NCBI GenBank assembly: GCA_019096195.1
Contig: JAGTXK010000050.1
Span: forward strand, 434,001-498,000
Length of the DNA: 64,000 nucleotides
Direction of reading: 5' to 3'
Source: Boletus sp. NGJ
Taxonomy: Eukaryota; Basidiomycota; Agaricomycetes; Boletales; Boletaceae
Part shown: piece after piece, positions 1,801 to 64,000 of the stretch
Numbering within the stretch: the first letter of the stretch is position 1
Layout: each line of letters begins with the position of its first letter
Notes under the pieces: model-generated
The model's input: the letters and a program-made list of their open reading frames with translations, nothing else
Databases searched by the model: none
Told to the model about the DNA's origin: nothing
Position numbers and translations under genes: made by a program

Positions 1801-2169
1801 TATACTAAGTGGCAGGTGACGCGAGGGTGGAAGGCAGAAGACTGTGGTACGTCAAGTTGCTCTGAGGGAAGACAAACGAGACTTCCGCGAGTCGGAAGCG
1901 GCCATGCCGTGATCATGATATCCCTCGACAGTTCCACTCATAACTCAACATATTTCGATCACCTCCGAAGTGGTTACATAAATAAACATTTGTTGTTGAG
2001 CAAGTATTCGCGGCGGGTGACTCGGAATAGACCGTCACTGAAGCTTTGACGTGCCATTTTAAACTTGAGGTGCGTTCCATCATTCCCCCTGACATGATAT
2101 TGGATAGCAGCTACAAACGACAAGTACTACAGCAGGGCAAAGCAGGGAGTGAACGGGGATACAGAACTA
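1801..2169. other. Intergenic, between Boi relic 1 and the 3' end of TPR-CHAT A
   Basis: No coding region is supported. The right part is the 3' flank of TPR-CHAT A. Confidence 0.5.
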
Positions 2170-5100: not shown

Positions 5101-6466
5101 CAATGGCCTCGTTAAGGTCCTCAATCGCCCCGAGCTGGCTGTACCGAACGGAGAGGTCCAACGAAAGGTTGTTCAAAGATATTGCACGATCTGGATGCCC
5201 CAATGGGAAAAGAGCCAGTGCGTCTCGGGCGAGGACAATGGCCTCGTTGAGGTCCTCCATCGCCCCGAGTTGCTTGTACCGAGCAGAGAGAGGAACTGCG
5301 AGATTGTTCAAAGACATTGAATGATCCGGGTGCCCTGGTGGGCAAAGCACCAGCGCGTTTCGGGCGAGGACAATGGCCTCATTGAGGTCCTCCATCACCC
5401 CGAGCCGGTTGTACCGAGTGGAGAGGTAATTGGAAAGGTTGTTCAAAGACTTTGACAAAATTGTGTGCCCCGCTGTGGAGAGCACCAGTGTATCTCGGGC
5501 GAGGACAATGGCCTCGTCGAGGTCCTCCATCGCCCCGAGCTGCTGGTACCGGGTGGAAAGGTAAAACGAAAGGTTGTTCAAAGACGTTGAACGATCCGGG
5601 TGTCCCCGGTGGGCGAAGCACCAGTGCCTCTCGGCCGAGGACAATGGCCTCGTTGAGGTCCTCCATCGACCCGAGCTGTTTGTACCTAGTGGAGAGGCAA
5701 AGCGAAAGGTTATTCAAAAACGTTGACCAATTTGGGTCCTCCACTGTGTAGAGCTCCAGTGCGTCTCGGGCGAGGACAATGGCCTCATTGAGGTCCTGTA
5801 TCTCCCCGAGCTGCTTGTACCGGGTGAAGAGGTGAAGCGAAATGTTGTTCAATGACGTTGAACGACCTGGGTGCCCCGATGGGCAAAGTGCCAGTGCGTC
5901 TCGGGCCAGGACAATCCCCTCGTTGAGGTCCTCCATCGCACCGAGCTGGTTGTACCGAGCGCAGAGGTGAACTGAAAGGGTGTTTAAAGACATTGAACGA
6001 TTTGGGTACCCTGGTGGGTGAAGCGCCAGTGCGTCTCGGGCAAGGACAATGGCCTCGTTGAGGTCCTCCATCGCCCCGAGCTGCTTGTATCGAGTGGAGA
6101 GGTGAAGCGAAAGGTTGTTCAAAAATACTGAATGATCTGGGTACCCCAGTGGACGAAGTGCCAGTGCGTCTCGACTGAGAACAATGGCCTCTTCGAGGTC
6201 CGTCATCCCCCCAAGCTGGTTAAAACGATCACGGAGATGACTTCCCAGCTGATTTAAGGAGATATGTCGCTCAGGGTGGCTGGGCGGGCAAAGTTCTAGT
6301 GCTTCGCGATCGAGAACAATCGCCTCGTCGATGTAATTGCTCCCACCTCCTTGCTGAAACTTGGCAACAAGGGATTCCGCCCGTGAATGCAACTGATCTA
6401 CTGGCAATTACATTGTTTCAATGCTCTCCGCGCCGGCAGAAAGAGACAAATACCTTTTGAATCCAT
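2170..6466 (-). pseudogene. TPR-CHAT protein A, 19 repeats, two frameshifts
   Basis: Tandem TPR-like repeats followed by a CHAT protease domain, the fungal version of a caspase/separase-like peptidase architecture. Start: ATG at 6466-6464 opens a 13-nt exon (6454-6466), then a 53-nt intron (6401-6453), then one long exon. A stop just inside the intron in the read-through frame supports splicing. Nineteen repeats of 46 residues run from about 6300 to 3800, with consensus H-P-D-R-S-x-x-L-N-N-L-S then R-Y-x-Q-L-G-x-M-E-D-L. The CHAT domain follows, with HLACHG near 2570 and SACHTT near 2440 giving the expected His-Cys pair. Compared with copies C and D there is one extra base near 5603 and one near 3023, each shifting the frame. 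The product is therefore cut to the first repeats unless these are sequencing errors. The other copies have ten repeats. Confidence 0.85.
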
Positions 6467-37640: not shown

Positions 37641-37797
37641 GATTGATGACCGCCATGACCGTCTATATATGAACGCTGAGAAAAAGTTAGCCTGAACTTT
37701 CTCGTGGGGAGATTTCATGCCACTTCTCCCATATCCCGCGGTGATGGTGCAAGTGTTTTTCCAAACCACCATGTTAAGTCAAGTTTTGTCAGCCCAG

Positions 37798-40700: not shown

Positions 40701-40906
40701 TCTGGACGATGTGGGCGGTGGACGATGCTCAGACGAACATGATTACGTCGGTATTTTACAACAACATGATAGACGAGTCTGGTAGTCTGAACTATACCCG
40801 TGCAGCATTGGCGCTGAACAGGACGATGAACAAATTGGTGAATATACCATTCGATCAACGTATCTTGTATATGCACCTCTGGCGCAGGGGTAAGTCGTTG
40901 AGATGA
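37798..40906 (+). pseudogene. TPR-CHAT protein C, 10 repeats, one frameshift
   Basis: Same architecture as D. Exon 1 is 37798-37810 (13 nt), the intron is 37811-37863 (53 nt), then one long exon. Ten 46-residue repeats (about 37970-39240) are followed by a helical linker (LLEQGRGVFWSQLTRL) and the CHAT domain from about 39870. Relative to D one base is missing near 40243, in a CTC-CTG context where D has CTCACCG. The main frame then ends at 40316 with a short wrong tail, and the rest of CHAT continues in another frame to 40906. The catalytic region lies beyond the shift, with WVHLACHG near 40480 and FACHTT near 40615, so the 870-codon frame would lack it. Copies of the TPR-CHAT leader are present only in part upstream (37715-37750). 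Confidence 0.87.
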
Positions 40907-44639: not shown

Positions 44640-44986
44640 AGCAGCCGTTGGCATATTGGTGTATCGTATTCGCAGGCATCCCATCCACATCCTGCCAGGT
44701 GAGCCTATATCTGGGAACATTGAACTCGACGAGCGGCGAACGCGACCGTACGTTCAGTTCCCGTTCAGGTATACATTGTCACGAAAATGCATAAGCACCA
44801 CTGTTGACATGTGAATTTATTTACCATAGCTTCCCACCATCCAGGCCCGCGATCCACTGGTAGACAGCCCGACTTCAATGGCTCGTGCAGAGGACCGTAC
44901 AACTCCATTCCACTCAGCAAAGTCGTCCTAACCTCACTGACAGGACCAACTAACGTCGAATCGGACTCTGAGTTGTCATTAGACAT
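44640..44986 (-). CDS. Unrecognised small gene or fragment
   Basis: ATG at 44986 opens MSNDNSESDSTLV followed by YGPLHEPLKSGCLPVDRGPG and ends at WWEAM before a GTAAAT donor-like site. A second stretch near 44640-44765 (SPLVEFNVPRYRLTWQDVDG) ends in a stop at about 44640. Both have natural composition, but no intron with matching phase and acceptor could be placed between them. Family unknown. It lies between TPR-CHAT C2 and D, in DNA not shared with the other units. Confidence 0.3.
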
Positions 44987-45189
44987 AAAGGTTGCGAGGT
45001 GCCATTACCGAGTTATACACATGACATGGAAGCCACTCCCGCGATCCAATCTATGCGATTCAGGGCTACTGGTATCTGAGAACAGGACAGCAATGCGATG
45101 AGAAGCCTCCTTGCGTGTCCATGATGCCAGACAGTTTACGCGACTGATGACCGCTAAGCATCTCGCCACTGGATACATTCCATCCCACT

Positions 45190-45454
45190 TCCTACTCCTC
45201 CCACATCCCACGGTGGTCGTGCAATGCAATCGAATGCGAGGAGGTTTCCGATAGAGCGGACGAGTAGTTCTTTGAGAGGTTGCAGTCGGCCTTTCGAGAG
45301 GCAGATCCATGTTCGCCGAACAAAGAGTCCATTGCGGTGTTTCGGTGTGGGAAGGCCTTTACATCGTTAGCCCTTCTCGGACCAAGTGGCCCGCTCGCAC
45401 AGTATCCCAGCGCTATCCCGAACCACCATGTCAAATCAAGTTTGGTCGACTCAG
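45190..45454 (+). promoter_or_regulatory. Leader/promoter of TPR-CHAT D
   Basis: Directly precedes the intact copy and shares blocks with the leaders of A, C2 and the left-edge copy. An open frame runs through it into the gene and would add 75 residues. This is rejected as coding because copies A and C2 have a stop at the same junction. Confidence 0.5.
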
Positions 45455-48400
45455 ATGGATTCCAAAGGTACTTGTCTCTTTCTGCCTGCGCGAGGAGCAG
45501 TGAAATGATGTGCCTGCCAGTTGATCAGTTGCTTTCTCGGGGGAAATCCCTTTTCACCAAGTTTGAGGAAGGAGGTGGGACCAATTACATTGATGAGGCG
45601 ATCGTCCTCAATCGCGAAGCATTAGAACTTTGCCCACCCGGCCACCCCAAGCGGTATCTTTCCATGCATGAGCTTGGACGTCATCTCCATGTTCGTTGTA
45701 ACCAGCTCGGGGAGATGACGGACCTCGAGGAGGCTATTGTGCTCGGCCGAGATACGCTTGCGCTCTGCACAGAGGGGCACCCAGATCGGTCAATGGCTTT
45801 GAGCAATCTCTCGCTTTACCTCTCCACACGATACAAGCGGCTTGGGGCGATGGAGGATCTCAACGAGGCTATTATCCTCGGCCGAGATGGATTGGAGCTT
45901 CGCACATCGGGGCACCCAGAACGGTCAAAGTCATTGAACAACATTTCGTATTACCTCTCCATTCGGTACAAGCAGCTCGGGGTGATGAATGACCTCGAGG
46001 AGGCCATCGTCCTCGCCCGAGACGGACTGACGCTTCGCCCACCGGGGCACGTGAATCGGGCAATGATTTTGAACAACCTTTCGTTTTACCTCTCCCTTCG
46101 GTACAAGCAGCTCGGGGTGATGGAGGACCTCGACGAGGCCATTGTCCTCGCCCAAGACACGCTGGCGCTTCGCCCACCGGGACACCCAAGTCGGTCAATG
46201 GCTTTGAACAACCTTTCGTATTACCTCGTCACTCGGTACAAGCAGTTCGGGGCGATGGAGGACCTCAACGAGGCCATCGTGCTCGCCCGAGACGCACTGG
46301 CAGTCTGCACATTGGGACACTCAGATCGGTCATTATTTTTGAGCAACCTTTCGGATTACCTCTTCACTCGGTACAAGCAGCTCGGGGTGATGGAGGACCT
46401 CAAGGAAGCCATTGTCATTGCCCGAGAGGGACTAGCGCTTTGCCCACCGGGACACCTAGATCGGTCATCGGCTTTGAGTGACCTTTCGGTTTACCTCCTC
46501 ACTCGGTTCAAGAAGCTCGGGGAGATGAAGGACCTCGAGGAGGCCATTATCCTCGGCCGAGACGCACTGGTGCTTCGGCCTCCGGGGCACCCGGAGCGAT
46601 CACTGGCTTTGAACAACCTTTCGCATTTCTTCTCCACTCGGTACAAGCAGCTCGGGGCGATGGGGGACCTCGAAGAGGCCATTGTCCTCGCCCGAGATAC
46701 ACTGGCGCTCTGCACAGCAGGGCACCCCGATCGGTCAATCGCTTTGAATGACCTTTCGTCTTGCCTCTCCATTCGGTATAAGCAGCTCGGGGTGCTGGAG
46801 GACCTCGAGGAGGCCATTGTCTTCAGCCGAGATGCACTGGCTCTTCGCCCACCTGGGCACCCAGACCGGCCAACGACATTGGAGGGCCTTGCAGGCCACC
46901 TGTGTACTCGGTTCACAACCTCGGGTCAGTTAGAGGATAAGGAGGAGTTATTCAGTCTTTATGCTCAGCTGGCACATCCACCCTCAATGGTGTCATCTGC
47001 AGATCTGTCTGCCGCTAGAACATGGATCCATGTGGCTGAAGATTTCAACCATTCCACCACACTTCTAGCATATGAAGCATATCTCCGATTGCTTACCCAT
47101 CACCTTGCCACTCTACCACCTTTGCCTCAACATCGCACTGTCGTCAAGGGCCTCACGTCGTCGCTCGCGGTCGATGCATTCTCCGCTTGTCTTCGTAATC
47201 ACTCTCCTACCAAAGCACTCGAGCTTCTAGAACAAGGTCGCGGCCTCTTTTGGAGCCAGCTCGCTCGCCTCCGTTCCCCACTTGATGATGTCATTGCATC
47301 TGGATCGACAGGAAAGATGTTGGCAGACGAGTTCACACAACGGACCTTTGCCATTCGTACTGCCCTTGATTCACCCGGTCCGGATCAGCATGATCGAGTA
47401 TGTCGTCTCAATGTTGAGTTGCAAGGAGTCGTTACCAGAATCCGCGAGTTGCCTGGTCTCTCCCATTTCCTTCTCCCCTCTCCCTTCTCCGATCTCCAAC
47501 AGGCTGCCTGCGAGGGCCCTGTGATCGTCGTGAATGCAAGCAAATATGGCTGTGATGCACTCGTTGTCCTAGTCGACCGAAATCCCCACCACATCCCATT
47601 GTCAATCACAAAGGAAGGTGTCCGAGAACTATTGTCGAAGCTCAATAAGTTGACTGTGGATGCAAAATCGATGGACGTGACAAGAGAACTTGGGATTTTT
47701 ATGCGGGAACTCTGGCACGAGGTTGTTTCTCCCATTGTCAATTACCTCAAGACGGTGCATCCATTTCAATCACGCATTTGGTGGTGCCCTACTGCCGAGT
47801 TCTCTCTTCTTCCCCTCCACGCTGCTGCTCCGTATCGGGATGGCCAACGGAATCTCGCGAATTTGTATATTTCGTCTTATACCCCCACGCTCACCGCGCT
47901 CATTCGTGCTAGACGGCACGCTCTCCCGCATTCTGCATCAAAAGGGAAACACTTCGTTGGTATAGGTCAAGCGCAAGCCAAGGGCGAGAACGAACTCGCT
48001 TGCGTCGGCGCCGAACTAGCCAACATCAAGCAGCGTATCGATGGCCTCGCCACATTTACGCACATCGAGAGTCAAGAGTCCTGCATCGCCCGGGTCACCG
48101 AGGAACTTAGGAAGAACGAATGGGTGCACTTTGCGTGTCATGGTATCCCAAATCGGAAACAGCCATTCGAGTCCGCGTTCGCTCTCCACGACGGGCGCTT
48201 CACGATCGAACAGATCATTCGGTGTGAACTACAGAACCCCCAGTTCGCGTATCTCTCTGCCTGTCATACGACTGTCGGGGACGAGGAAAGTCCTGACGAG
48301 GTGATTCATCTCGCGTCGGCGATGCAGTTTGCCGGGTTTCGCTCTGTGATCGGGACGATGTGGGCGGTGGACGATGCTCAGACGAGCAAGATCGCCTCGA

Positions 48401-48537
48401 CTTTCTATGACAATATGAAGGATGAGTCTGGTTGTCTAGATCATACTCGTGCAGCGTTGGCGCTGAACGAGACGATGGAAAAATTGGCGAATATACCATT
48501 CGATCAACGTATCTTGTATATACATCTCGGTGCCTAG
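45455..48537 (+). CDS. TPR-CHAT protein D, intact, 1009 aa
   Basis: The only unbroken member of the cluster. Exons 45455-45467 and 45521-48537, with a 53-nt intron (GTACTTGT to CTGCCAG). The N-terminus is MDSK joined to VDQLLSRGKSL. Ten TPR-like units of 46 residues (residues about 35-470; consensus H-P-D-R-S then L-N-N-L-S and R-Y-K-Q-L-G) resemble the kinesin-light-chain class. A helical linker follows (LLEQGRGLFWSQLARL). The CHAT domain is residues about 665-1009, with VIVVNASKYGCDALVV, FQSRIWWCPTAEFSLLPLHAA, the catalytic His likely 878 in HFACHG, the catalytic Cys likely 919 in LSACHTT, and SVIGTMWAVDD. CHAT domains are caspase/separase-like peptidases. A role as a repeat-sensing protease in cell death or self/non-self recognition is inference; the target is unknown. 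Confidence 0.93.
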
Positions 48538-48784
48538 TCTTCTCTACACTACGTTTGCTCTCGTGCTTTCCCCTACTGTACTTGCTGTTTGTAGCTTAAT
48601 TTTAAACCTTGGGCCCCTTCGGGTCCAGGAATAATTAGGTAAGCTTTACTAGCAGCCGTCACGGGTACTCGACTTTCTCATACCGTATACGCTTGGGAGC
48701 CAGCTTTCCCCAATACATTATCAGAAATATGCAGTAGCAAATGTTCCCACGATTGACAAACTCTGAGGAGCCAGTGCTGCACAT

Positions 48785-49020
48785 CAGTAAATTTACATGC
48801 ATCTTAATCTGGCTTATTCTAGCTAATTCTGCTTGTCAAATTACAAAATATATTCATTACCATGATAATGCATTCCAGAACATTAGAAACATCATCATAA
48901 ACCAAGCTAATCTATTTTTCAACAAAATGAGGGTTAGAATTTGTCTCTATGTCAGATTTGGAAATGTTGTGCAAGTCAATAAGCTGAATAAGACAGAATA
49001 AGGTGCATGTAAATTTACTG
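48785..49020. mobile_element. 236-bp MITE with CAGTAAATTTACATGCA inverted ends
   Basis: Starts CAGTAAATTTACATGCA and ends TGCATGTAAATTTACTG, perfect inverted repeats with further weaker matches inside. It is AT-rich with no coding potential. The equivalent place in the inverted pogo copy (about 63945-63960) lacks it: GCTGCATATGCTATGAC there, against GCTGCACAT, then the MITE, then ACGCATTCACTATGAC here. That proves insertion and leaves a short, degraded target duplication. Confidence 0.8.
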
Positions 49021-49047
49021 ACGCATTCACTATGACAAAAACACCAA

Positions 49048-49190
49048 CTACTTTGACCTCATAAACCTATGTAAAGTTGTTTGCTTTGCACTCTTCATGT
49101 CCTCATATTGCAATTTAGCATGGAAAGCACAAATATGATGAATGAAATCAAGTGAGGCATCAGCATCAGTCTGGGAAATGCATGCGTCCT
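49048..49190 (-). pseudogene. C-terminal end of the pogo-like transposase
   Basis: Encodes ACISQTDADASLDFIHHICA then KSAKQTTLHRFMRSK and a stop at 49048. The pattern of a helix followed by A-K-Q-T-T-L is the usual C-terminus of pogo/CENP-B-like DDE transposases in fungi. It is the 3' remainder of the frame broken at 62925. Confidence 0.7.
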
Positions 49191-49384
49191 CCCACATGAT
49201 GCAGTCAAATTTGCCTGTAGCATATGGTGAGCCTGCTTGCAAAACACCCAACATGTATAGATGATACTGTGACGGGCCTGAGATATATGAGATGTGTAAG
49301 ACACAGCCGGGCCTGCCTAACATGCATATACATAGGATACAGAAGGCCCTGGAAAGGGTAACTAGATGAAGGATTGATAGATAC

Positions 49385-49812
49385 AAAACAGCCCCCAGTG
49401 GGGTGAGTAAGATTGAGGTCAATGCATATGATGGGACTGAGCAGGGTGGGGGTGACCAAGTACTGAGATATACGATAGGACCGAGCAGTGTGAGCATGGC
49501 TGACCTTGATGTATATGATGAGACCAGGCAGGTTGGGGGTGACCAAGGGCTGATGTATATGACCACACCAAGCAGTGTGAGGGTGACTGACCTTGATATA
49601 TACAGTGGGACCAAGTAGGGTGAAGGTGACCAAGTACCAATGTATACGACCACACTGAGTGGTGTGAGTGTCACTGACCTCAATGGATACGATGAGACTG
49701 AGCAGGGCAGAGGTTACCAAGTACCAATGTAGACAACCACACCAAGCAGGATGAGGGTGACTGATCTCAATGGATATGATGAGACTGAGCAGGGTAGAGG
49801 TCACAAAGTGAC
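49385..49812 (+). repeat. Subterminal tandem repeat array, left arm of the KDZ-type element
   Basis: Imperfect units of about 85-90 bp, each with two related halves: GTGACTGACCTTGATGTATA, a GGGACCAAGCAGGGTG-like block, GGTGACCAAGTACCAATGTA, and a CACACCAAGCAGTGTGAG-like block. The array continues at 55397 beyond a copia insertion. Confidence 0.8.
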
Positions 49813-50352
49813 AGAATCTAAGAAAGGGCAGGAGTGCCCAAGACTCAGCCACTGCCTAAGAGGGCGAAAACAACTGAATTATTCATCTAAGAAAGGGCAG
49901 GAATGCCCAAGACTACAGTGCATTAGCTACAGGTAAATGATAAGTAAAAAGAGACTCACCTCAGCCACTGCCTAAGAGGGTGAAAACGACTGAGGTGTGT
50001 CAGTGAGTGGAAATTATATATGTATACTATGGGCGGAGATATGCTCATATTATATTATGTGAACAGGTCCAAAAGAAGCATAATATGTGTAAATATTAGC
50101 TAAGAAATGATGGAAAGTTTAACTATAATAAAAGCTCATTTTGAGTTTAGAATGAGCATGGAAAAGTTCTGGAAACAGTTCCGGAGCAGTTCTGAGATGA
50201 CCATCTTGAAACCTGTAGAAGGGTGTGGGAAAATCTTGAAAGCAACCCTCAGAACTGGAGGTTCCAGGATGTGGTTTCGGAATGATACTTCCAGGATCAG
50301 AAGTGATGGAACTAGAATGGTTTGGGACTTAATTATGGGTGAATATTGTCAC
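49813..50352 (-). repeat. LTR (3') of copia element 1
   Basis: Direct repeat of 54958-55396. It contains an extra segment of about 100 bp that partly duplicates the LTR start. It ends GGGTGAATATTGTCA like its partner. Confidence 0.85.
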
Positions 50353-53300
50353 TCCCACTCAAGTATAACCATAGTCCCATGACTTTAACAAACTTCCAGT
50401 GTTGATCCCTTATAAGTGGTGTAAGTATACTGTATCTGCCACCATGTCTCCAGTCGGAACATAGTGAATAATTGCTTCTCCCTTTCCAACGAGGTCATCT
50501 CTGATGAAGTGGTACTTCTGTTGGATGTGCTTGGCACGTGCTCAAAACTGTGGATCACAGGATAGGATTATAGCAACTTGATTGTCACAGAATGGCTCAG
50601 TTGGATCCTTTTGTGTATGTCCAATTTTATCAAAGAAGGTCTGGAGCCATGCAAGATGTTGTCCAGCATTGCTAAGTCCAATGTATTCTGACTTGGTAGT
50701 GGAAAGTGCAACCATGCTTTGTTGTTTACTGGGCCAGGAGATGGCTCCATGATTGCTCATGAAGAGAAAGCTGGAAGTAGATTGGGAATTGTTGGGGTCC
50801 TGAGACCACCCAGCATCAGTGTATCCATGGAAGTCCAAGTCCATTGAGATCTTAGTTCCATCAAATCTAAGTTCCATGTCCTTTGTGGCTTGAATGTATC
50901 TAAATGCTTGTTTTGCTGCCTTCCAATGAACTAGTTTGGGTTTTGCACTGAACTGACTAAGTGTCCCAATTGTGTATGTGATATCTGGACATGTTCTGAG
51001 CATGAGGTACATCAAAGACCCAATGATAGTGAGGTAAGAGACTTGACGTCCTTCAATGACCATTTCTGAAATGGTACAATCATTCTCTGGATCAGTTGCA
51101 GAGAGGTGGGAATTGTGTGCCATTGGAGTCCATACAGGTTTACAGTTTGACATGCCAGTATGTTACAGAGCTGTCTGGGAGTACTGCAATTGGGATAGAG
51201 AGATGGTTCAAAGCTCACAATTATGCTTGATTTCGATCCCCAAGATGTACTTGGCTTCTCCAAGATCCTACATTTTGAAACTGGAAGAAAGTTCCTTTTT
51301 GACAGAATCCATGAACTTCTAAGAGCTGGCAGTTAGGAGTAGGTCATCAACATAGACCATCAGGAAGCAGACCTGTTTGTCCTTCTGGTAGACATAGAGG
51401 CAAGTCTCTGCATCCAAACGAGTGAAGCCAAGTTCTCCAAGCTTTCAATCCAGGGTTTTGTTCCAAGTTCTTCCAGCCTGTTTGAGTCTATACAGGGAGC
51501 ATCGGAGCTTCCAGAAATATCTGGGTTGGATAAAGATGTCATCTGGAGGTAGCATGTATAAATCTTCCTCAAGTTCTCCATTCAGATATGCTGTGGAGAC
51601 ATCCATTTGATCCAACTCTAGATTGTGTTTTGCAGCCAGGGCAATCAGAGTACAGACTGAATTGAGGTTTGCTATTGGGGCAAAAACTTCCTAGTAATCA
51701 ACTCCTTTCCTTTGGGTGAATCCCCATGCAACTATCCAAACCTTGTATTGTTCCACATTTCCACTTTGGTCTCATTTAATGTAAAAGACAGGTTTGGAAG
51801 TGATGGGGGTGACTCCCTCTCCCTCTGGGATGAGAACAGTTTCATAGACATGATTGGAATTGAGGCTTTGAAGCTCTTCTTCCACTGCTGATTTCCAGAA
51901 TTCTGTATGTACTCCAGAGTAAGCCTCCTTGAGTGTTCTAGGAAGGGGTTCATTTGAGTCTGAGTTTGCAGAACCAGCAAATATGAAGTACTCCATATTT
52001 TCTATGGATGCTGAAAAGGCTCCTGAAATATTGGGTTCATCTCCAATGTGTTCTGGCAATTCCAGATGTTCTAGTGGTGGTTCCAGGTGCTCTGGTAGTG
52101 GTTCTGGTGGTTCTGGTGGTTCCGAGTGTTCTGCTTGTTCTTGCCGTTGATGGGCTTGTCTCATAGCCACTTCATCCAAAGTATGTTGATATTCTTTGTT
52201 CTTGTTTGCTGGTCGTCATGGTCAATTACTTCTACATACATTAACTGCTTGTTGAGCAACAGGATGAGTAGGAATAGGTGCAGGAATAGGAGGGGCTGGA
52301 ACAGCTGGGAGGATTAGAACAGCTGGGAGGATTGGAACAGCTGGAGGTGCTGGAATAGCCAGAATAGCTGGAGGAACTGGGAGATGGAGTGCATCTAGAT
52401 GAAGTTGTTCAAATTGATCTGCGAGCTCTAATATGACAGGGCTTGCTGGTCATTCAGGAACATCTGCTGGAGCTACATCTTCTCCCACTGGTCTGGAATT
52501 GGATGGACAGCAGTCTTCATCATCTCCACTGTTGTCCTCTGGTTGACAAAGATGCTCTGGAATTAGGCCCTCCCACTGTCCCTTAATAGCAGGGCCATTA
52601 TATGGAGCTGAGTCAGTTTCAGAGATGGTTCTGGTTTCATCAAAAGTAACATGTTGACTGGAGATGATAGTTCGATGTTCTATGTCCAGGAGCTTGTAGG
52701 CTTGTTGTCCATACATGTATTCAATCATAATGCATTTCTTTCCATGTGGTTGGAATTTCCCTCCTTGTTGTTCCTTTGGTATGTAGACATATGCTGGACA
52801 TTCAAAAGGTTAGAAGAAGGAGGGATTGACTTGGTGATTGAAAAAGACTTGATAGGGTACCTTTCCATCAAGTCCAGAAGTTGGGCTCCATGCAGTAACA
52901 TAAGCAGTGGTGGCCATTGCATCAGCCCAGAAAGACTTTGGAGGTTTGGATTCTTCTAGCATGGTGTTTGCAAGAGTGCATAGGGTCTGGTTCATCCATT
53001 TCACTCATCTGTTATATATGGAGCCAAGGTCTCATAGAGTGTTCTGTCAGTTCAGAACTAACTTTGGAATGCCTTATTGACATACTTGGTTCCTCCATTA
53101 CTTCTGACAAACTTGACATAGGATTCTGAGAAGTTCTCTTGTCCTATCTTAGTGTGAAGGAGTGTTTGGACATCTGTTTTCCACTGGTTGTAGATTCCAA
53201 GTGCTTCGTTTTTGTGTTTCATAAAGTAGACCCAAGGGAAATGGATGAAGTTGTCTACGATGACAATCCAAAATCTATGGCCTTCCTGGAATCTTGGAGT

Positions 53301-54957
53301 TATTGGGTCTCCAACATCTATGTGGATCATTTCAAGTGGGCAAGTGGTGCAAGATCCATCTTAAAGTTTGAAGGGTAGTTTCTTCATCTTTCCAAGAATA
53401 CATGCTTTACAAAATGTTGGTGAACCACTTAGTGTGTCTATCCCTTGGAGTTGTCCAGATTTCACCATCTGTTGAATGCGGTGAACAGAGACATGGCCCA
53501 TGCATCAGTGTAGAAGATTTATGTCTACTGTGGCATGTGCTGCTTCCTTCTGATCATTTGGATTAACCCTTGCATGCTATAGTCTATTTTTCTGTGTGGC
53601 AGCAAGTATGGTGTTCCGGTGCTTCCGAACATAGCACATGTCAGAACTGGCCAGAAAGGTAGTGGAAAGGCCAGCAGAAGCAAGTCGGTTCACAGAGATG
53701 AGGAAAATCTGGAACTCAGGAATTAGGAGAACATTAGATAGAATTATCTCATAGGTGGTTCCAGACACTTGTGAGATAAGTGGTACTGTTCCAATTCCTA
53801 TGGCCATGGTATTGGAATCATCTCTGAGGGTTACGGAATGAGGAGGGTGTAGTGGACGGTATGTCTGGAACCAAGAGCGATGAGGAACAATGTATGAAGA
53901 ATTGATGATTAGTGTGTTGCTCCCACTGCTTTTAGGTTCAGATGACAAGTAGGCATGAATACATTGCATTGTGGAGCAAGATACATGTTCTCTAGCTATG
54001 TTCACCATATCTGGAGGATCTGGAGTTTCCTCCACTGCATTTGCCTTACCCTTTCCTTTCTCCACTTTTCTAAACCCTCCTTTCCTCAGCTCAGAGATCC
54101 ACTTTTTGTAGGTGTTACAGTCAGAGGAGTTATGAGTTGATGAGAGGTGGTGCTCACACCAGGAAGAGGTGTTTGAGGGATGAGTCGATGATTTGGAATG
54201 TCCAGAAGCTTTCATGGCAGACTCGGGATGGCTGGAAGGGTAGAGCCATGCATCTTCTGCAGTGATCCGGGTTTCTATGGTGTCAAAGGTGAGTTTGCTA
54301 TCTTCCACAGTGTTGATGACAGAAGATTTGAACATTCCCCATTTCAGAGTTTTCAAAAGGGAGTTTAGAAGGATGAATGAAAGGACTTTGTCATCCACTG
54401 AAAACTTCATTCCAGCAAGGCAAGCTTCCACTGTTCAAAGTGTGGAGATGCATTCGGCAACAGCAGAAGTTCCATTCCATGTACTATTGAAGAGTTGTTG
54501 GAACAGATAGAAGGCGGAGGAGATATTTGGGCTTTCATGAAGTTTCACAAGAGTGTCAAAGAGTTTCTTGGCACTGGAGCAGGTGCAAGTTTTCATTAGA
54601 AGGGCATCAGAGATGTATTGCTGAATGATGCCATGAGCCTTTTCATCATGTTGCTGCCATTCATGGACATCAGAAGTGGTAGCAATGCTTAGTGAGCCAA
54701 CAATGGGATTTATGTCTGTTCCAGCAGTAACACCAAAAACCTTTTCAGCACAAAGTTTTGCTGAGATGCAAACCTTCCAGATTTCATAATTGTTTGGTCC
54801 AGTGAGGGTTTCCTCTGGATGAATGGTGTCTGAGGGAGACATGGTGGAAGGTGTGGAAGTGAGTTCATGATGAACTGAGGTGCACTGAGGGATGTGTGAG
54901 GTGAGGTTGAGTTGTCGCTGAGTGTTACCATTTAGCTTGTACCAACAGGGCTCATAA

Positions 54958-55396
54958 CCTAACAGAATCTAAGAAAGGGCAAGAATGTCCAAGACTCAGC
55001 CACTGCCTAAGAGGGTGAAAACGACTGAGGTGTGTGTCAGTGAGTGAAAACTATATATACTATGGGCAGAGGTATGCTTGTATTATATTATATGTGATAT
55101 TATGTGAACAGATCCAAAGAAGCATAATATGTATAAATATCGGCTAAGAAATGATGAGAAGTCTAACTATAATAAAAGCTCATTCCGAGTTCGGAATGAG
55201 TGCAGGAAAGTTCCGGAAACAGTTCTGGAGCAGTTCTGAGATAACCATCTCAGAACCTGCAGAAGGGCACAGGAAAATCTCAGAAGCAACCCTCAGAACT
55301 GAAGGTTCTGGGATGTGGTTTCAGAATGGTACTTTCAGAATCAGAAGTGATGGAATTAGAATGGTTCGGGACTTGATTATGGGTGAATATTGTCAC
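54958..55396 (-). repeat. LTR (5') of copia element 1
   Basis: Direct repeat of 49813-50352, ending ATTGTCA at 55396. The KDZ-arm repeat resumes immediately with CCAAGTACCAATG. Confidence 0.85.
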
Positions 55397-55850
55397 CAAG
55401 TACCAATGTAAACGACCACACTAAGCAGGATGAGGGTGACTGACCTTGATGGATACAACCACACTGAGCAGTGTGAGCATGACAGACCTCAATGTATATG
55501 ATGGGACCAAGCAGGGCAGAGGTGACCAAGTGCTGATGTATATGACAGGACTGAGCAATATGGGGGTGACTGACCTTGATGCATATGGTGTGACTGAGAA
55601 GCATGGGTGTGACTTACCTTAATGCATTTGACCAGAACCAAGCAGTGTGAGCACTGCTTACCTCAATGGATATAGCAGGACCAAGCAGGGTGGGGGTGAC
55701 CACTTGCCAATCTATGTGATGGAACCAAGCAGTGTAAGTGTGACTGACCTTGATGCATATGATAGGATTGAGTAGGGCGAGTGTGACCTAGTGCAATGGA
55801 TACAGAAGAGACTGAGCAAGGTGCATGTGATACACCTTGAATATGGGGAG
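55397..55850 (+). repeat. Continuation of the left-arm subterminal repeat array
   Basis: Same 85-90 bp unit as 49385-49812, interrupted by copia element 1. It ends near 55850, where non-repetitive interior begins. Confidence 0.75.
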
Positions 55851-56330
55851 ATGCTATGGCTAATGCATTGTTCTGTCCAAAATCTACTCTTCTTGGTGGC
55901 TGTGAATGAGTCTCCAAATCTGGACTAACACTTGAAACATGAGTTTCCATGGGAACCTACCACTCTATATATTTTCCTGATTCCTGCTTTCCCCAATCCT
56001 CTCAGATCTTCCTTTCACCATAAGCCCCCCTGAAATTCCTAACAATTGGGCCATTTCCTATACCAATAAATTAGCTGCCTATATGGTGTCTAGATTTCAG
56101 AATTCCCTACCGTCTACCAATGACAATAGTCAGCCAAAAATTACATCTCCATGCATTCCCATGCAGACAGTTTGCAAGGCAAACAGGATGGTCACCATTA
56201 TTTCAAAAGCATATCAAAACAAGGGTATGGCTCTCACATTTGATAATGCCCTGCTAATTCCCATCCAGTGATGATCAGCAATGTTGACATCATTCGGCTT
56301 GGTGAATGAATCAAAAGGAGGAGACATTCA
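55851..56330. other. Interior of the KDZ-type element, unassigned
   Basis: No recognised gene. There are short open stretches on the plus strand only. This is possibly the upstream part of the oxygenase gene that follows. Confidence 0.35.
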
Positions 56331-57240
56331 ATGGTGCCATCAGATGGTGATGATCAGGAATATGCCATGCTCACCGAATCTGCTGTTGTTACTGATTGTT
56401 CAGACTACATCTTACTTTGGTACTTACCCAGTGCAATCAGCCACCCTAATCAAGTAAGTATGTCCCTAGGTTCCACAACCATCTCACCAATAGATCAATC
56501 AAGCAATACATCTGGGAACAGCTACTGCTGCTGTCTAGGTCTCTTTTCCACAGCTTGACCAGAAATACTCACTGGCAAATCTCAGAGGCAAACTTCCACC
56601 CTACAGCAAAGCTGTGAGGGACAATCAACCTATCTCCTGCTTGGTTTCAACAGGGCCAAAATGTCGATATTTATTTGGCTTTCCCTCTTTTTCATCAACC
56701 TGACATTGGTCAACAGGAGGAAAATGGGCCACCTGAGGTCATAGCACTGCTCAAGGCAACCAAAAATGATAGCAGAGCATGTGAATGGCTGCTGGCCATG
56801 AAAGAGCATTTAGCTCTTTTGATGATTTGGGTTGGGAGGTATTGGTTTGGCTTGGCAACTGGGCAGCCACACAGGAGGACCTTGACATGAAGGATGTACT
56901 TCCTTTGTGGTCATCGGTTTATAATGTTGTTTCCGTCATGGCCAACCAAGCTAGCCCATTTCACACCAATATAAATGGAAAGCCCCAGTGGTTGGATCTT
57001 CTCGTCTCAATTGGTAACTACACTGGGTTAGATTTTGTGATCCCCATCATCAAGCATCAGCTTTGGTATGACCCAGGGACAGTGATTGTATCCTCGGGGC
57101 AAATGCTTGAGCATGGAGTCAGTCTAGTTGAAGGGGAGCAGGGGGTGCTCTCATACTACATGCAGGACAATGTTCATGAATACATGGATGTTTCCCACTG
57201 TAATTACATGAAATATGAGATTTGGGGAGGACAGTAAAGA
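56331..57240 (+). pseudogene. TET/JBP-type 2OG-Fe(II) oxygenase relic
   Basis: The best segment (about 56785-57234) reads DVLPLWSSVYNVVSVMANQ, then a degenerate metal site HTNINGKPQWLDLLVSIGNY, then DPGTVIVSSGQMLEHGVS, EGEQGVLSYYMQDNVHEYMD and CNYMKYEIW before a stop at 57235. The order (S-V-Y-N, H-x-D-like, G-x-P-x-W-x-D-L-L, D-P-G-T, L-x-H-G-V, Y-Y-M-x-D-x-V-H-E) is that of the fungal TET/JBP family linked to KDZ transposons, which oxidise 5-methylcytosine in related proteins. The usual Asp of the metal triad is Asn here. The upstream part (56331-56785) is in broken frames. The relic is probably inactive. Confidence 0.68.
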
Positions 57241-58374
57241 ATAGACAGGCAGTCAAAGTCAGACGTAGATTTGTTGCCTCAGTCTGCACTTGGTTAGTCA
57301 TATTTGCTGAACTCAGCCAAGATATCGCCAGATAAAGCTTTGAATTACAAATTACAACCTTTAACTATGGACAAGGAGTCTGGATCACAGGCCAAGCATG
57401 CATCACTGATCCTTCCAAAACAGTTTCCACAACCGAACCATATCTACCCAAGACTCTATCATCATTGCCTCTGCCTTTGCAAGCTCAGCAATATTTTGCT
57501 GAAGCTCAGCCAAAATCCTGGTTGCCAGGGGGCATCTAGCTGAGCATTGTGAGCATTGTCCAATGGAGACTCATCCATTGGCCAATAGTCCTTGTGATGA
57601 ATTAGCTAATGACCATGATCCAAGTGATCCACATACCTGGAAGAAGATTTCCACCCTTGCAAAGGAATTGGAAATGAATAATTGAAATGCCTTGAGATGG
57701 TAGTCTGGAATGTTGGCCACCCACCATGGATGCTTGAATCCAAAGGTGGGCGCACCGGTGCTTGGCTGCCAACCTGGCAAGAGCTCTGGGGTTCACTTCA
57801 TGCCATTGAGGCCAATTTCTGAGGTGGCACAGATGATGTCCTGTTGGAGATCCTCTGGACTGGTGCCAACTTTGATGAATCAGGCACAGGATGGGGTCGG
57901 TGGAGGTGTGGTGTGCATGGGCACATATAGGCCTAAGTAAAAGGCCAAGACGTTCTGCAAATCAACAATGTCAAAGGGCCGATCTGCAATGTGAAATGGA
58001 AAAAACATCCCAATTCCATGATCATATTATCATGCCAAGTTACCAGCCACTGCTTGGCAGGAAGTCATGCAAGATGTGCCATGGCCACTTCAATCCAGCA
58101 CTTCTAATATCACAGCATCATGTGGAGAGTGGTGACAGATGTGTCATCAGAAAATGTTTCCATGGCAGAATGGGGAATATGATGAAATGGAGGGTGTGGA
58201 GAGACTGTGGTTATATATTCAGCCCATGCAAATCTTGGAATATCCCAAATTCATCAATAATGCATGACAGTTTTGGACAGGCTGTGTATTTTTGTCATGA
58301 TATGATGTCTACTTATAAAAAGAGGCTATCATCCAATGTCTCCATAAGTTGTGACTCTCAGCAGCTTTTCCACT
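57241..58374. other. Interior of the KDZ-type element, unassigned
   Basis: No gene could be supported. Short open stretches occur on both strands (for example 57891-58382 plus and 57571-57796 minus) without a recognised family. They are probably decayed transposon coding sequence. Confidence 0.35.
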
Positions 58375-58640
58375 CTGCCTGACACTGTTCCTGAAGTCGA
58401 GCATAGATGGCCTGCTGGTGGGCAGCATAGCATGTTTTTCCTCAGCTGTCATTTTGCCGACTGTGTGCTGCATGCTCTTCCCATTTCCTTGATTTGTGGT
58501 TGAAGTAACCAATGGTCCATTCAAACTTGGCCATTAGTAGCTCTGCCTCCTCTCTCCACTGATCCATTGTGGCTTTTGCACACAATCAATGTAGCTCTGC
58601 GATCTCATATACATTCATGTCTTTCATGGTCTGTAGCTCC
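58375..58640 (-). pseudogene. KDZ transposase-like C-terminal fragment
   Basis: The minus strand reads DQWREEAELLMAKFEWTIGY, then FNHKSRKWEEHA and GKTCYAAHQQAIYARLQEQ. A pattern of M-x-R-W-x-E-E-x-x-L with an aromatic W-x-x-x-F and a W-E-x-R/H-A is seen near the C-terminus of KDZ transposases in Agaricomycetes. It is interrupted and lacks the catalytic core. The assignment rests on this short stretch and on the nearby TET/JBP relic. Confidence 0.45.
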
Positions 58641-61600
58641 ATCTTCATCGCCATGAGCCATAGTTCATGGTTGGGTCAGAGCATGGCCTCCTCATATGTA
58701 GCTGGTGGGATGGACATGTCATAGTCTGATGTGGAGGGATCTCAACACTTGTCGCTTCTGATGGTGATATAAGCTTGCTCTTTGATGACATGAGCTTGCT
58801 CGCCTATAGCAATGTCTGCTGCAATGTTTGGGATGTTGTTGTTCAATTCAATGGCTCCCAGAGAGTCAGTATCCATGGCCTCGTTGCCTATCACCCCCTC
58901 TGACGAAGCAGGGTGGCCCAAATTGTCTGATCACACCCCCTGAGTTGTGACAAGCACATGTTGATCACGAAGCACATCCAGATGGGCCTTGACAGCCACA
59001 CGCTCTTCAGCATAGGCTTTACCAGCTTCATTCATGTACCGTGTGTGACTGGACTTGTGAAGAGGGTTAGGAGGCAGTAGTGCCATAGCAGGAGGGGGGA
59101 GGATGGGCACAGCAGGTGTTCCAGGCACCATAACCACATCTGTTGAAGAGGTGAATGTGGGAAGGGGGGGAGAGGGCAGTGCAGGCTTATCCCTGTCCTC
59201 ATCTTCCTCATTCTTAGTACTCCCAAAGTCCTCATCAAAAATGATGTTGTGTGCAATAAAGAAGGCACCACTGGAGGTGTCACATAGGCGATAGCCCTTC
59301 ACCCCCTCTGGATAGCCCATGAAGAGTGCCCAACGTGACCTTGGTCCAAGCTTATTCTGCATCTTAGTGGAAATACACACCCAACATTGCAATTCAAACA
59401 TGCGGAGGTGGGACAAGTCAGGTTTCTTGTTGTTAACCATTTCATAAAGCGTCTTTCCAGGTGGGAGGACTGTGGACTCAGTATGGTTCCATAGGTAGGC
59501 AGCAGTAAGGACAGCCTCACCCCAGAGGGTCAGGGGTAGACCAGCTGCCTTGAGTATAGCGAGAGAATGGCCCTCAAGGGTCTATATCACCCATTCAGCT
59601 TTACCATTTTGTTGATGAGCATAAGGTGCTGCTAGCTGTCTCTTGATCCCAGCATCCTCCAGCACTTTTATAAACTCTGCACTCAGAAATTCCCCACCAT
59701 TGTCGGAATGAAATGCCTTCACCCTGCACTCTGCATGATTCTCCCACAAGTTCTTGATGATTTGCCATGCATTTAATGCTTGGTTCTTGGTAGCAAGCAG
59801 TTGAACATTGATGACATGCATGTGGGGTTTGAACAGGAAATGGTCCACAGATATTGGAGTGGATTAGATCCAGCATATTTGCCATGTGCAGGGTCTTAGA
59901 TGGGGGATAGGGTTTGCAAGGGTGCTTGGCCATGATGCATGCTTCACATTGAGAAAGTGGCTTGGAATGGTCTATACTTATGCCGGTTGCAACTAATGGT
60001 AAGCACTTCACTGACTCGCCCCCTTGGTGACCTATCCTAGCGTGCCATAGGTCTAAGCTTACTGTGGTTTTGGTGACCACGGAGATCTCCTGTACCATTG
60101 ATGCTTGCAAGAGGAGCTTACTGGGGTGAATGAAGTGTAGCTCCACATGACAGAGATTCCCTGTCAAGAGGAGGTCACCCAGAGCTTCACTATGATAGGA
60201 AAGTTGACACTGAGCCGACATCCCACTGTGCGACTCTTTGAACTCACAGTCCCAGCCTTTCTCCAACATGTGCCCAACTGAAAGAAGGTTGGTGAGTGCG
60301 TCTGGAGCATGGAGGCAGTCATACAGTGTGACCTGGTACTTCTCTTCTCTGAGGATGAGATCTGCAACACATATACCCCTGCCAGTGGTGCATAACATAC
60401 CATGGTTGGCAGTCTGGACACCTGGGTTGTCCTCTGTCTGGAAGTCCATGAAGTACTCCCTATTGATAACAAGGTGAGATGTCATACCTGAGTTGAGTAG
60501 AGTGGAGACGAAGTTGTCAGGAAGTTCAGTAATTGCAGTGCAGGACAGTTCACACTGGTATTCACTAGTAGAAGGGTTCTGGGGAGTTGATGAGGGTGAA
60601 TCAGAAGAGGTTGCCATGGCCACCACTGTGGTCTCAGGCTTCTGACTCTTGTTGCGAATCCATGCAGGGGCTTTGTTCTCCATACTGCTGCCAGGCCAAT
60701 AGCAGTGAGTGATATTGTGGTTGTCAGCATGTGGGAGGCTAGCGCATAACACATTGGTGCATTTCACCCCTTTAGGGTTGTTGCAATGCATCCAGAATCC
60801 AGTGACAGGATCTGTTTTGATGTTCCCCCCATGCCTTGTACAATCACGACATTGGTGTATTCTGACCCTGGTCCTGCTAATTTTCTCCTTCCAACAATAG
60901 CATTTGCCTTTTTTGTGAACAATTTGGCAACAGCATCGAAAGTCAGAGTTGAGGGAGTGGTGGTGCTCATGGTAGAGGTGGAGGAGCTAGACATACAGTT
61001 CATAGTGAACTCCTTAAAAATCTGCCATTCAATGCTGTCTGGGAGACCCTGGAGCAAGTTTAAGATTGATTCATCATTGGAGTAAGTAATTCCCATTTGA
61101 ATAAACCTGAGACATGCGACCTCAAAGACCCTGAGATACTGAGATGTGTCATCAGCATCCTTGAGTTTTTCTGAGTGTATTTAAGTGTGAAGCTCATACT
61201 GGGAAAGTAGGTCATTTTGAGAGTAGCGTTCAGATAGGATATCCCATTGTTCATGTGCTGTCTGGCTTTTATTGAGTTGGTTTGTGACAATGGAGGAATT
61301 TTTTTGGTTGATCAGTGCCTTGGCTTGTGCATTCTTCGCCAACCAGTTGAGGATCTTTTCCTTTTCCTCGTCAGTAACAGCAGTTGGGTTTGCTGGTATT
61401 GGCTTATCAATGGCGAACTCTGTGAAATCAATCGGATTTGTGCCATTACTGCAGTGGTTCCAGAGACATTTGCCCTTAAGGGCTAATGTCATCTGACAAT
61501 GCCACTGTGCATATGTAGTTTTTGGCCCCTGTAAGTTCACAAATGTGGTCACATTTCCCCATGGTTATTTCTGTGGTTCTAAGTGAGTGCTCTGAGTCTA

Positions 61601-61965
61601 GATTTTGATGATTAGGGTTCTGCCTGGTCAGAACCTAGGGCTCATAACCTGATCGAGCTAGATGAAGTAACTCAGTGAACATAAAAGTGTGAGAGCACTA
61701 ATATTAATACCTAGATGAAGTAACTAGGTACTTATAAGCATGAAACAATGTGAGTCTAGCTGGTCAACATACATGAAAGTGTGAGAGTGCTGAGGAGAGA
61801 TGTTGATCAGATGACGCATGTTCTAGCACTACAAGATTACATAATATGATAAATGTGGTAAGACGAGTGCACAAAGGTGCTACAAGCTGCCAAGTGCAAG
61901 ATGGTGCAAGATATGGAGCAGCCAAATGAATAAGATAAGATAAATAAGTTCAACAACATTAGCCC
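58641..61965 (-). mobile_element. Ty1/copia LTR retrotransposon 2 (fossil, partial)
   Basis: Minus-strand gag (from 61552), Cys/His knuckle and protease region (60791-60400, with the D-S-G-like active-site segment), integrase (about 60150-58950, with GHQGGESVKCLP and FHSDNGGEFLS) and the very start of reverse transcriptase (ATYEEAM near 58700) can be recognised. A GGTTATGAGCCC block at about 61630-61645 matches the primer-site-like block of element 1, so the 5' LTR should be about 61650-61965. No second LTR was found. It is broken, with several breaks, and looks old. It differs clearly from element 1 and is a separate lineage. Confidence 0.8.
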
Positions 61966-62745
61966 TTGGTCACCTCCACCCTGCTCAGTCCCATCATACA
62001 CATTGAGGTTGGTCACACTCACCCTGCTTGGTGTGATTGTATATATTGGTACTTGGTCACCTCCACCCTACTCAGCCCCACCATATACATTGAGGTCAGT
62101 CACAGTCACACCACTTGATGTGGTCGTATACATCAGCCCTTGGTCACCTCCACCCTGCTCAGTCCCACTGTATCCATTGAGGTCAGCCACCTCTACCCTG
62201 CTTGATATGGTTGTATCCATCAAGGTCAGTCACCTCCACCCTCCTCGGTGTGGTTATATCCATCAAGGTCAGTCACCCTCACACTGCTTGGTGTGGTCGT
62301 ATCCATCGGTACTTGGTCACCCCCACCCTGCTCAGTCCCATCATACACATCGAGGTTGGTCATGCTCACACTGCTTGGTGTGGTGGTATACATTGGTACT
62401 TGGTAACCTCTGCCCTGCTTGGTCTCATCATATCCATCAAGGTCAGTGACACTCACACTGCTTGGTGTGGTCATATACATTGGTACTTGGTCACCTCCAC
62501 CCTACTTGGTCCCACCGTATATATCAAGGTCAGTCACCCTCATACTGCTTAGTGTGGTCAGATACATCGGCCCTTGGTCACCCCCAACCTGCCTGGTCTC
62601 ATCATATACATCAAGGTTAGCCATGCTCACACTACTCAGTCCTGTTGTATATATTGGTACTTGGTCACCCCCACCCTGCTCAGTCTCATTGTATGCATTG
62701 ACCTCAGTCTTACTCACCCCACCAGAGGCTGTTTTGTATCTATCA
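61966..62745 (-). repeat. Subterminal tandem repeat array, right arm of the KDZ-type element
   Basis: Reverse complement of the left-arm array: units with CTTGGTCACC(C/T)CCACCCTGCT, TACATTGAGGTCAGTCAC and CTGCTTGGTGTGGTCGTATA. About nine units of 85-90 bp, including partial ones. Confidence 0.8.
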
Positions 62746-62924
62746 ATTCTTCATCTAGTTACCCTTTCCAGAGTCTTCCATATTCTATATATATGCATGT
62801 TAGGCAGGCCCGGCTGTGTCTTACACATCTCATATATCTCAGGCCTGTCACAGTATCATCTGTACATGTCGGGTGTTTTGCAAGCAGGCTTACCATATGC
62901 TATGGGTGAATGTCACCACATGGG

Positions 62925-63555
62925 CTCATCCTCCAACTTTTGACTGATTCCCATCAGCTCTGTCGTAGTAATAGTTGGCCCACTATTACCATCATCATTG
63001 TCATCTGAGTCTACCTTGATGATATCTCCATTCTGAACAGCCTTCCAACGATGAACCTCAGTGATAATGGCCACATTGTTCTTGAAGACTGCAGCATCTG
63101 TGTCCATGGTCTCCTCCTCCTTGATCAGGTTGAGAATCTCATTGACTGTCAGCAACTCCCAAAAGCCTCTATTCCTGCTCTTGAGATTTGCCACAGATGT
63201 GCTCAAATCCTTTTCTAGTGATTTGAGCTGTGATGGTTTTGCACAAGGTGGAAGTTTGACCACAAGACCTGTACACATGCATACAGCAGCAGCAAGCTTG
63301 TCAACTGCTTCAGTGGCTTGCACAACATCACCCTCAGCAGCCAAAATGGCATCAAGGGCAGTATTCCAGTTGAATGAGGTGTAGCGAGTGCCCAGATGCT
63401 ATTTGAGTGAAGTGTGCACTTGTGGGAGTGTTGTGTCACTTGATGCAAATTCATGAATGATAGCCCATGTGCCAGGATCAGCATGAGCAGGATGAGACAA
63501 TGGAGCAGTCTCATTCTGAATTCCTATGTGATTCCAGCAGTGCTGGATGATTGAG
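62925..63555 (-). pseudogene. Pogo-like transposase, part upstream of the KDZ insertion
   Basis: The minus strand reads LPKDSIIQHCWNHIGI, EGDVVQATEAVDKLAAAV, FWELLTVNEILNL, DTDAAVFKNNVAIITEV, NGDIIKVDSDDNDDG and GISQKLED, where the KDZ-type element enters. A C-terminal region with D/E-rich tract and E-x-V-x-W-x-x-V-Q-x-G-D-I is typical of pogo/CENP-B-type transposases. At least one stop interrupts it, near 63400. Confidence 0.68.
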
Positions 63556-64000
63556 TCTTTGGGGAGTTGCTGACAGTTGATGAGATTCTTGATCCAATTG
63601 AGGAGAAGGAGACCATGGACACAGATGCTGCAGTCTTCAAGGATGATGTGGCCTTTATCACTGAGGTTCATCATTGGGAGGCTGTTCAAAATGGAGATAT
63701 CATCAAGGTAGACTCAGATGACAATGATGATGGTAATAGTGGGCCAACTATTACTACGACAGAGCTAATGGGAATTAGTTAAAAGTTGGAGGATGCATGC
63801 ATTTCCCAGGCAGATGCTAATGCCTCATTTGATTTCATTCATCATATTTGTGCTTTCCATGCTAAATTGCAATACAAGGACATGAGAAGTGCAAAGCAAA
63901 CAACTTTATATAGGTTTATGAGGTCAAAGTAGTTGGTGTTTTTGTCATAGCATATGCAGCACTGGCTCCTCAGAGTTTGTCAATTGTGGGAACATTTGCT
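63556..64000 (+). pseudogene. Inverted copy of the pogo transposase C-terminus
   Basis: The plus strand reads GELLTVDEILDPIEEKETMD, FKDDVAFITEVHHWEAVQNG, then GIS and, after one stop codon, KLEDACISQADANASFDF and RSAKQTTLYRFMRSK. It then gives the pogo 3' flank to the window edge (TTGTGGGAACATTTGCT), the reverse complement of 48736 onward. It lacks both the KDZ-type element and the MITE, so it shows the empty sites for both. It joins the minus-strand copy head to head at about 63555. Confidence 0.75.

What the first reader, a model, noticed from the sequence alone, without database searches (positions are those of the whole stretch)
49191..62924. A 13.7-kb KDZ/Zisupton-type transposon with resolved tips, 8-bp duplication and internal empty site
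Inverted tips (CCCACATG / CACATGGG side), arms near 1 kb, duplications TGCGTCCT and CTCATCCT, and an uninterrupted target (TGCATCCT) in the fold-back pogo copy at about 63785-63795 together define the element exactly. The insertion point lies inside a transposase gene whose two halves are now 13.7 kb apart. The TET/JBP relic inside fits known KDZ cargo. Few fungal KDZ elements have such a clean boundary.
Basis: partly seen in the sequence, partly recalled or inferred. Interest (0 to 1): 0.82.

Follow-up and report, generated by a model that had tools for sequence, protein, structure and literature searches.

The report
Gutted TET-carrying fungal DNA transposon
A decayed copy of a mushroom-type jumping gene that carries a DNA-demethylation enzyme gene; its two ends and the uninterrupted target are really there, but it has lost its own transposase and the family is of a known kind.

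Summary
Tips of many copies in the same genome show that the ends are CACATG... and ...CCACATGGGCTC, so it spans 49193-62927 (13,735 bp) with a 7-bp target duplication GTCCTCC/ATCCTCC. The uninterrupted target ATCCTCC lies at 63788-63794 (minus strand), in an inverted copy of the target, the end of a DDE_1 (pogo-type) transposase gene. Three related copies show 7-bp duplications (7/7, 7/7, 6/7). The arms, about 1 kb, are inverted arrays of an 87-bp repeat; the outermost 6 bp are not inverted. The window copy has no KDZ core: it holds a dead TET/JBP relic, a copia element in the left arm, and a truncated second copia element at the edge of a deletion that removed the transposase. Full-length relatives (16.1 and 17.7 kb) carry TET and KDZ genes; 11 of 19 left tips lead into TET then KDZ. 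Duplication length and TET type fit published TET+ Kyakuja, not Zisupton; the long inverted arms and the TC end differ from the published Laccaria Kyakuja. An ordinary fossil that helps define its family.

The parts
49186..49192 (+). left target-site duplication GTCCTCC (7 bp)
   Evidence: 6/7 with the right copy
49193..62927 (+). whole element, 13,735 bp, CACATG...CCACATGGGCTC
   Evidence: tips shared with other copies
49193..49808 (+). left inverted arm, outer part (87-bp tandem repeats from 49422)
49809..55395 (-). nested copia-type LTR element (RVT_2, gag, Pol_BBD, SH3-like; LTRs 84.0% alike over 407 bp), 5-bp duplication CAAAG/CCAAG (4 of 5)
55392..55846 (+). left arm repeats resuming after the copia element
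55850..58596 (+). TET/JBP gene relic (86.8-90.5% to 10 other copies, two of them identical to each other)
56785..57234 (+). open stretch with the TET/JBP core, HTN where relative C33 has HTD; 34-bp gap at 56822 relative to C33
   Evidence: PF12851 27.7 and 33.2 bits, cut-off 34.9
58591..58596 (.). deletion junction: local alignments of TET part and copia fragment overlap by 6 bp, of which GTA (58591-58593) is exactly shared by window, C33 and C36
58597..61955 (-). second copia element, truncated: one LTR (61655-61955) plus gag/integrase side; RT side and other LTR missing
61956..62927 (-). right inverted arm (8.3 copies of an 87-bp repeat at 61965-62689)
62928..62934 (+). right target-site duplication ATCCTCC
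62928..63398 (-). C-terminal part of a DDE_1 (pogo-type) transposase gene, cut by the insertion; continues at 49030-49192
63550..63950 (+). inverted uninterrupted copy of the target; empty site ATCCTCC = complement of 63788-63794

Best explanation
A fossil, internally deleted copy of a TET-carrying KDZ (Kyakuja-like) cut-and-paste DNA transposon family of about 16 kb. Inferred mechanism: the family's CxC2-KDZ transposase recognises the tips and the 87-bp repeat arrays in the inverted arms, excises the element and inserts it with a 7-bp staggered cut; the TET/JBP enzyme would oxidise 5-methylcytosine and relieve silencing. Shown here: tips, arms, 7-bp duplication, empty target, gene content of full-length relatives. 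In this copy the element entered a DDE_1 transposase gene and a copia element entered the left arm (both shown by duplications); a second copia element entered at or near the right arm, and a deletion removed, measured on C33, about 10.6 kb including the whole transposase gene, and part of that copia element (inferred from the junctions). The TET gene is dead and CpG decay is heavy. The copy could at most have moved with transposase supplied by a relative.
For: Shared tips (reversed control patterns give 0). 7-bp duplications in four facing same-contig pairs: C33 CACCATT 7/7, C97 CATCAAG 7/7, C68 6/7, window 6/7; among 399 left-right combinations only these two reach 7/7, and four reach 6/7: C68, the window, C133:56448 with C133:136905 (same contig, 80 kb apart) and C114 with C133:441005. 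Full-length relatives C33 and C68, C33 with CxC2 and KDZ and a TET matching CcTet structures at about 4e-16; 11 of 19 left tips lead to TET then KDZ; empty site; no KDZ in the window; copia identities; H-x-N in the TET core; lowest CpG ratio of 11 copies.
Against: Other same-contig pairs printed do not match: C3 4/7, C133 1/7 and 2/7, and C133:56448 with 441005 (385 kb apart) 0/7; I read these as tips of different elements, not proven. 8 of 19 left tips have no KDZ core inside by the rule. L059 and L060, 5.5 kb beyond the KDZ hits of C133 and C3, showed no arm, explained only later by the 16-kb length. The right end is TC, not TG, and inverted arms exist, unlike the Laccaria Kyakuja families. 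The transposase was not placed on a tree. Transposase binding to the repeats and TET activity are untested.
Confidence: 0.9

Rival explanations
1. A Zisupton-type element with 8-bp duplications ending at 49191/62924, as first read.
For: KDZ core in relatives; inverted arms; an 8-bp reading with the element one base shorter than mine fits C33 8/8 and the window 7/8.
Confidence: 0.06
2. A non-autonomous derivative that itself transposes as a family, with TET and copia cargo.
For: Both tips and arms are kept and relatives with transposase exist.
Against: Among 52 listed matches to 55850-61950 (40 of 57 candidates scored) only the window's own copy runs across the 58591 junction; the copy has the lowest CpG ratio of 11 TET copies.
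Confidence: 0.04
3. A composite: arms of two neighbouring nested elements, with no single insertion.
For: The region is densely nested, and facing tips on C3 and C133 do not pair.
Against: The duplication matches 6/7 with a transition, and an uninterrupted copy runs through the joined flanks.
Confidence: 0.02

Closest known systems
TET+ Kyakuja (Kyakuja-1_LB, Kyakuja-2_LB and others; Kojima 2025, PMC12730594, sections read)
   Same: KDZ transposase in relatives, TET/JBP gene related to CcTET, 7-bp duplications, 5' CA end
   Different: inverted arms of about 1 kb made of 87-bp repeats; 3' end TC instead of TG; the window copy has no transposase and a dead TET
Zisupton (8-bp duplications, TIRs; statement in PMC12730594)
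   Same: KDZ superfamily, inverted arms
   Different: 7-bp not 8-bp duplication; outermost 6 bp not inverted
Cryptococcus KDZ1-KDZ3 (PMC12810828, passages seen)
   Same: KDZ transposase, TIRs, elements of about 9-11 kb that move today
   Different: CxC1 not CxC2; TIRs of 139-241 bp; 8-bp (KDZ1) or 4-8-bp (KDZ2, KDZ3) duplications; no TET mentioned in the passages seen
CcTet of Coprinopsis cinerea (PDB 7vpn, 7w5p, 8jkk)
   Same: same dioxygenase family; H, D, the downstream D (Asp337) and H align in the C33 copy
   Different: in the C33 copy an Arg stands where CcTet has Gly331 (numbering); the window copy lacks the metal-binding Asp

Membership tests
KDZ superfamily | KDZ transposase core (PF18758) inside the element | tested here: met
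   met in relatives that share the tips (11 of 19 left tips); not present in the window copy
Kyakuja | 7-bp target duplication | tested here: met
   4 pairs (two 7/7, two 6/7); four other same-contig pairs printed do not match
Kyakuja | CA..TG termini (stated for two Laccaria families) | tested here: not met
   CA...TC
Kyakuja | no TIRs (stated for two Laccaria families) | tested here: not met
   arms inverted, 544 of 616, though the outermost 6 bp are not
Kyakuja | transposase groups with Kyakuja in a tree | not tested
   no labelled reference transposases were fetched
Kyakuja | AG-type TET/JBP with H-x-D and Asp337 equivalent | tested here: met
   C33 relative HTD...D; window copy has HTN; Gly331 equivalent is Arg in C33, where the paper reports Gly or Ser
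Zisupton | 8-bp target duplication | tested here: not met
   the eighth base mismatches in 2 of 4 pairs; it is a conserved element base in 10 of 11 right tips
pogo/DDE_1 transposase as target | DDE_1 core (PF03184) in the gene | tested here: inconclusive
   no Pfam match in the flanks; the same C-terminal peptide lies 136-254 bp behind a DDE_1 core at 14 of 24 genome places

The most novel reading that the evidence does not exclude
This genome's TET+ KDZ family is a structural variant between Kyakuja and Zisupton: 7-bp duplications and non-inverted 6-bp tips like Kyakuja, but kilobase inverted arms of 87-bp repeats that act as a transposase binding array, with left and right arms of one element partly homogenised.
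Probability: 0.4. Interest if true: 0.42.

Novelty: new member of a known kind. Interest (0 to 1): 0.3.

Why it matters
It gives exact ends and duplication length for a TET-carrying KDZ family and shows that such elements can have long repeat-built inverted arms, which the published Kyakuja text that I read does not mention. The family carries a putative methylcytosine oxidase, yet nearly all its CpG sites vary by transition, so it is a place to ask whether the enzyme ever protected its own element.

Tried and rejected
KDZ core in 55850-58640: rejected; that stretch is the TET part. The 58.6-61.95 kb segment as an unknown KDZ gene: rejected; it is a copia fragment. Eight-bp duplication: rejected. 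A 6-bp microhomology at the deletion junction, which I first believed from overlapping alignments: the letters printed share only GTA, so no repair mechanism is claimed. Right arms searched in L059 and L060: no match. Whether arms are homogenised within elements: inconclusive; C68 left and right arms are each other's closest (94.2%), the window's are 92.7% against a best of 93.2%, C33's are not close (29 of 30 arm loci, L029 left out for lack of a tip; tree printed without support values). A 311-aa open frame in the second half of the parent (C33:28102-29034, minus): one relative, nameless, among 5.8 billion proteins, weakly alike in C3 and C133 and with a stop in C68; function not resolved. 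The host species was not identified. Papers: PMC12730594 read in abstract, sections 18, 23, part 1 of 2 of section 24, figure legends and passages; PMC12810828 passages only; two PNAS papers on fungal TET/KDZ expansion and on Coprinopsis oxidised methylcytosine are not held and are known to me by recall only. Searches of print; the word Kyakuja occurs in 12 held papers, of which I looked into two; no held paper has Zisupton together with 'terminal inverted repeats' and 'subterminal'; supplementary files could not be read.
Full report
What was checked. The window is C73:434001-498000 of a 32.8-Mb genome in 141 contigs, no name given.

Ends and duplication. The two arms align without gaps from the tips for 616 bp, 544 identical, 57 of 72 differences being transitions; the best slipped control gives 0.316. 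An arm query gives 40 matches in the genome (40 of 62 candidates scored); 30 of these came with loci. Oriented, 18 of the 30 show a left tip, 11 a right tip, and one (L029) neither. Pattern searches with up to 3 mismatches give 19 left and 20 right tips and none for the reversed controls. Left tips share CACAT(G/A)ATGCAGTC with few changes; the two bases before vary. Right tips begin GAG in 10 of the 11, which were found without using those bases (18 of 20, where the pattern contains them). The element therefore runs from 49193 to 62927. One search printed eight same-contig pairs: four show 7-bp duplications (C33 7/7, C97 7/7, C68 6/7, window 6/7) and four do not (C3 4/7, C133 1/7 and 2/7, and a C133 pair 385 kb apart 0/7). 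Over 399 left-right combinations two reach 7/7 (C33, C97) and four reach 6/7: C68, the window, C133:56448 with C133:136905 (same contig, 80 kb apart) and C114 with C133:441005. An 8-bp reading adds a mismatch in C68 and C97. The empty target, in an inverted copy of the flanking gene, reads ATCCTCC at 63788-63794 on the minus strand; the right flank matches that copy at 90.65% over 246 bp and the left flank at 93.4% over 166 bp.

Arms. The arms are arrays of an 87-bp unit (4.5 copies at 49422-49809 and 8.3 at 61965-62689). The outermost 6 bp match at 1 of 6, bases 7-25 at 11 of 19, bases 26-100 at 71 of 75. So the arms are inverted but the very tips are not.

Inside. A copia element (49809-55395, LTRs 84.0% alike over 407 bp, 5-bp duplication CAAAG/CCAAG) splits the left arm. 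The TET part (55850-58596) is 86.8-90.5% like ten other copies, two of which are identical. Its core has HTN where the C33 copy has HTD, and a 34-bp gap against C33; the C33 copy matches CcTet structures at about 4e-16. The Pfam TET match in the window is below the family cut-off (27.7 bits, 33.2, cut-off 34.9). From 58597 to 61955 the sequence is a second copia element that has lost one side: its C36 relative carries gag, SH3-like and RVT_2 matches over cut-off and an integrase match below it, on the same strand; one LTR is at 61655-61955. The alignments to C33 and to C36 overlap by 6 bp at 58591-58596, of which GTA is exactly shared. C33:20900-31600, with the transposase gene, has no match in the window at E 1e-10, and none of the 88 PF18758 matches of the genome lies in the window. 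Of 52 listed matches to 55850-61950 (40 of 57 candidates scored) only the window's own crosses the junction.

Relatives. C33:16955-33059 (16.1 kb) and C68:34010-51661 (17.7 kb) are full-length relatives. C33 has TET on the plus strand and KDZ plus CxC2 on the minus strand. Eleven of 19 left tips lead into a same-direction TET within 12 kb and an opposite-strand KDZ core within 16 kb, against an expected 0.02 KDZ hits per tip by density. The 11 include two nested tips on C17 that share one TET-KDZ pair and two C133 tips with identical TET regions; 9 are independent. Of the eight that fail, the window is one, C127 lies at a contig end, and C81, C41, C114 and C75 have TET sequence but no KDZ.

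Target. The flanking sequence has no Pfam match itself. At 14 of 24 genome places where its peptide (62928-63398, minus) matches, a DDE_1 core lies 136-254 bp upstream on the same strand (my reading), so the target is most likely the C-terminal end of a pogo-type transposase gene.

Mutation. In 11 TET copies, columns with C or C/T vary at 125 of 127 CpG, 123 of 252 CpA, 91 of 197 CpC and 39 of 176 CpT sites; columns with G or G/A vary at 116 of 116 CpG sites. The window copy has the lowest CpG ratio (0.131 against 0.217-0.309). This fits deamination of methylated CpG (inference), with more change at CpA and CpC than at CpT, which I did not explain. The copia elements and the target gene in the window are also low in CpG (0.09-0.20).

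Comparison with what is known. PMC12730594 (sections read) reports TET+ Kyakuja with 7-bp duplications, CA..TG ends and no TIRs in two Laccaria families, and 8 bp for Zisupton. PMC12810828 (passages) reports mobile Cryptococcus KDZ elements with TIRs of 139-241 bp and CxC1. The family here fits the KDZ superfamily and is Kyakuja-like by duplication length and TET type; arms and 3' end differ; the transposase tree was not made, so I do not file it as Kyakuja outright.

Verdict. A real, well-bounded, dead member of a known kind of element, with corrected ends, duplication length and content.

Noticed in passing
window 48784-49021: A small insertion of about 240 bp with inverted ends (88.9% over 45 bp, CAGTAAATTTACATG...) in the left half of the target gene, absent from the uninterrupted copy (complement of 63931-63975): looks like a MITE.
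   Followed up: partly
window 2109-6334, 37761-40879, 45418-48596: Three related gene copies about 81% alike with 135-bp (45-aa) tandem repeats; Pfam finds TPR_10 in all three and a CHAT domain in 45268-48534.
   Followed up: partly
L081 about 1265 (C73:499265, beyond the window end): Another, more diverged left tip and arm (71.8% to this arm over 213 bp) starts 1.3 kb after the window; KDZ cores lie at C73:510111 and 514569.
   Followed up: no
L061 5673-6605 (C33:28102-29034, minus): The full-length relatives carry about 7 kb between the CxC2 domain and the right arm, with a 311-aa open frame with an acidic end and no known function; one nameless relative among 5.8 billion proteins.
   Followed up: partly
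L043 and L044 (C133:57552-60339 and 44913-47701): Two opposite-facing copies with 100.0% identical TET sequence, suggesting a recent inverted duplication, although their tips and flanks differ.
   Followed up: no
L020 (C133:56448) and L025 (C133:136905): A left and a right tip 80 kb apart on one contig have duplications matching 6 of 7 (CAAGGTC/CAAGGTT), perhaps one element torn apart by rearrangement.
   Followed up: no
[quoted passage not shown]
   Followed up: partly
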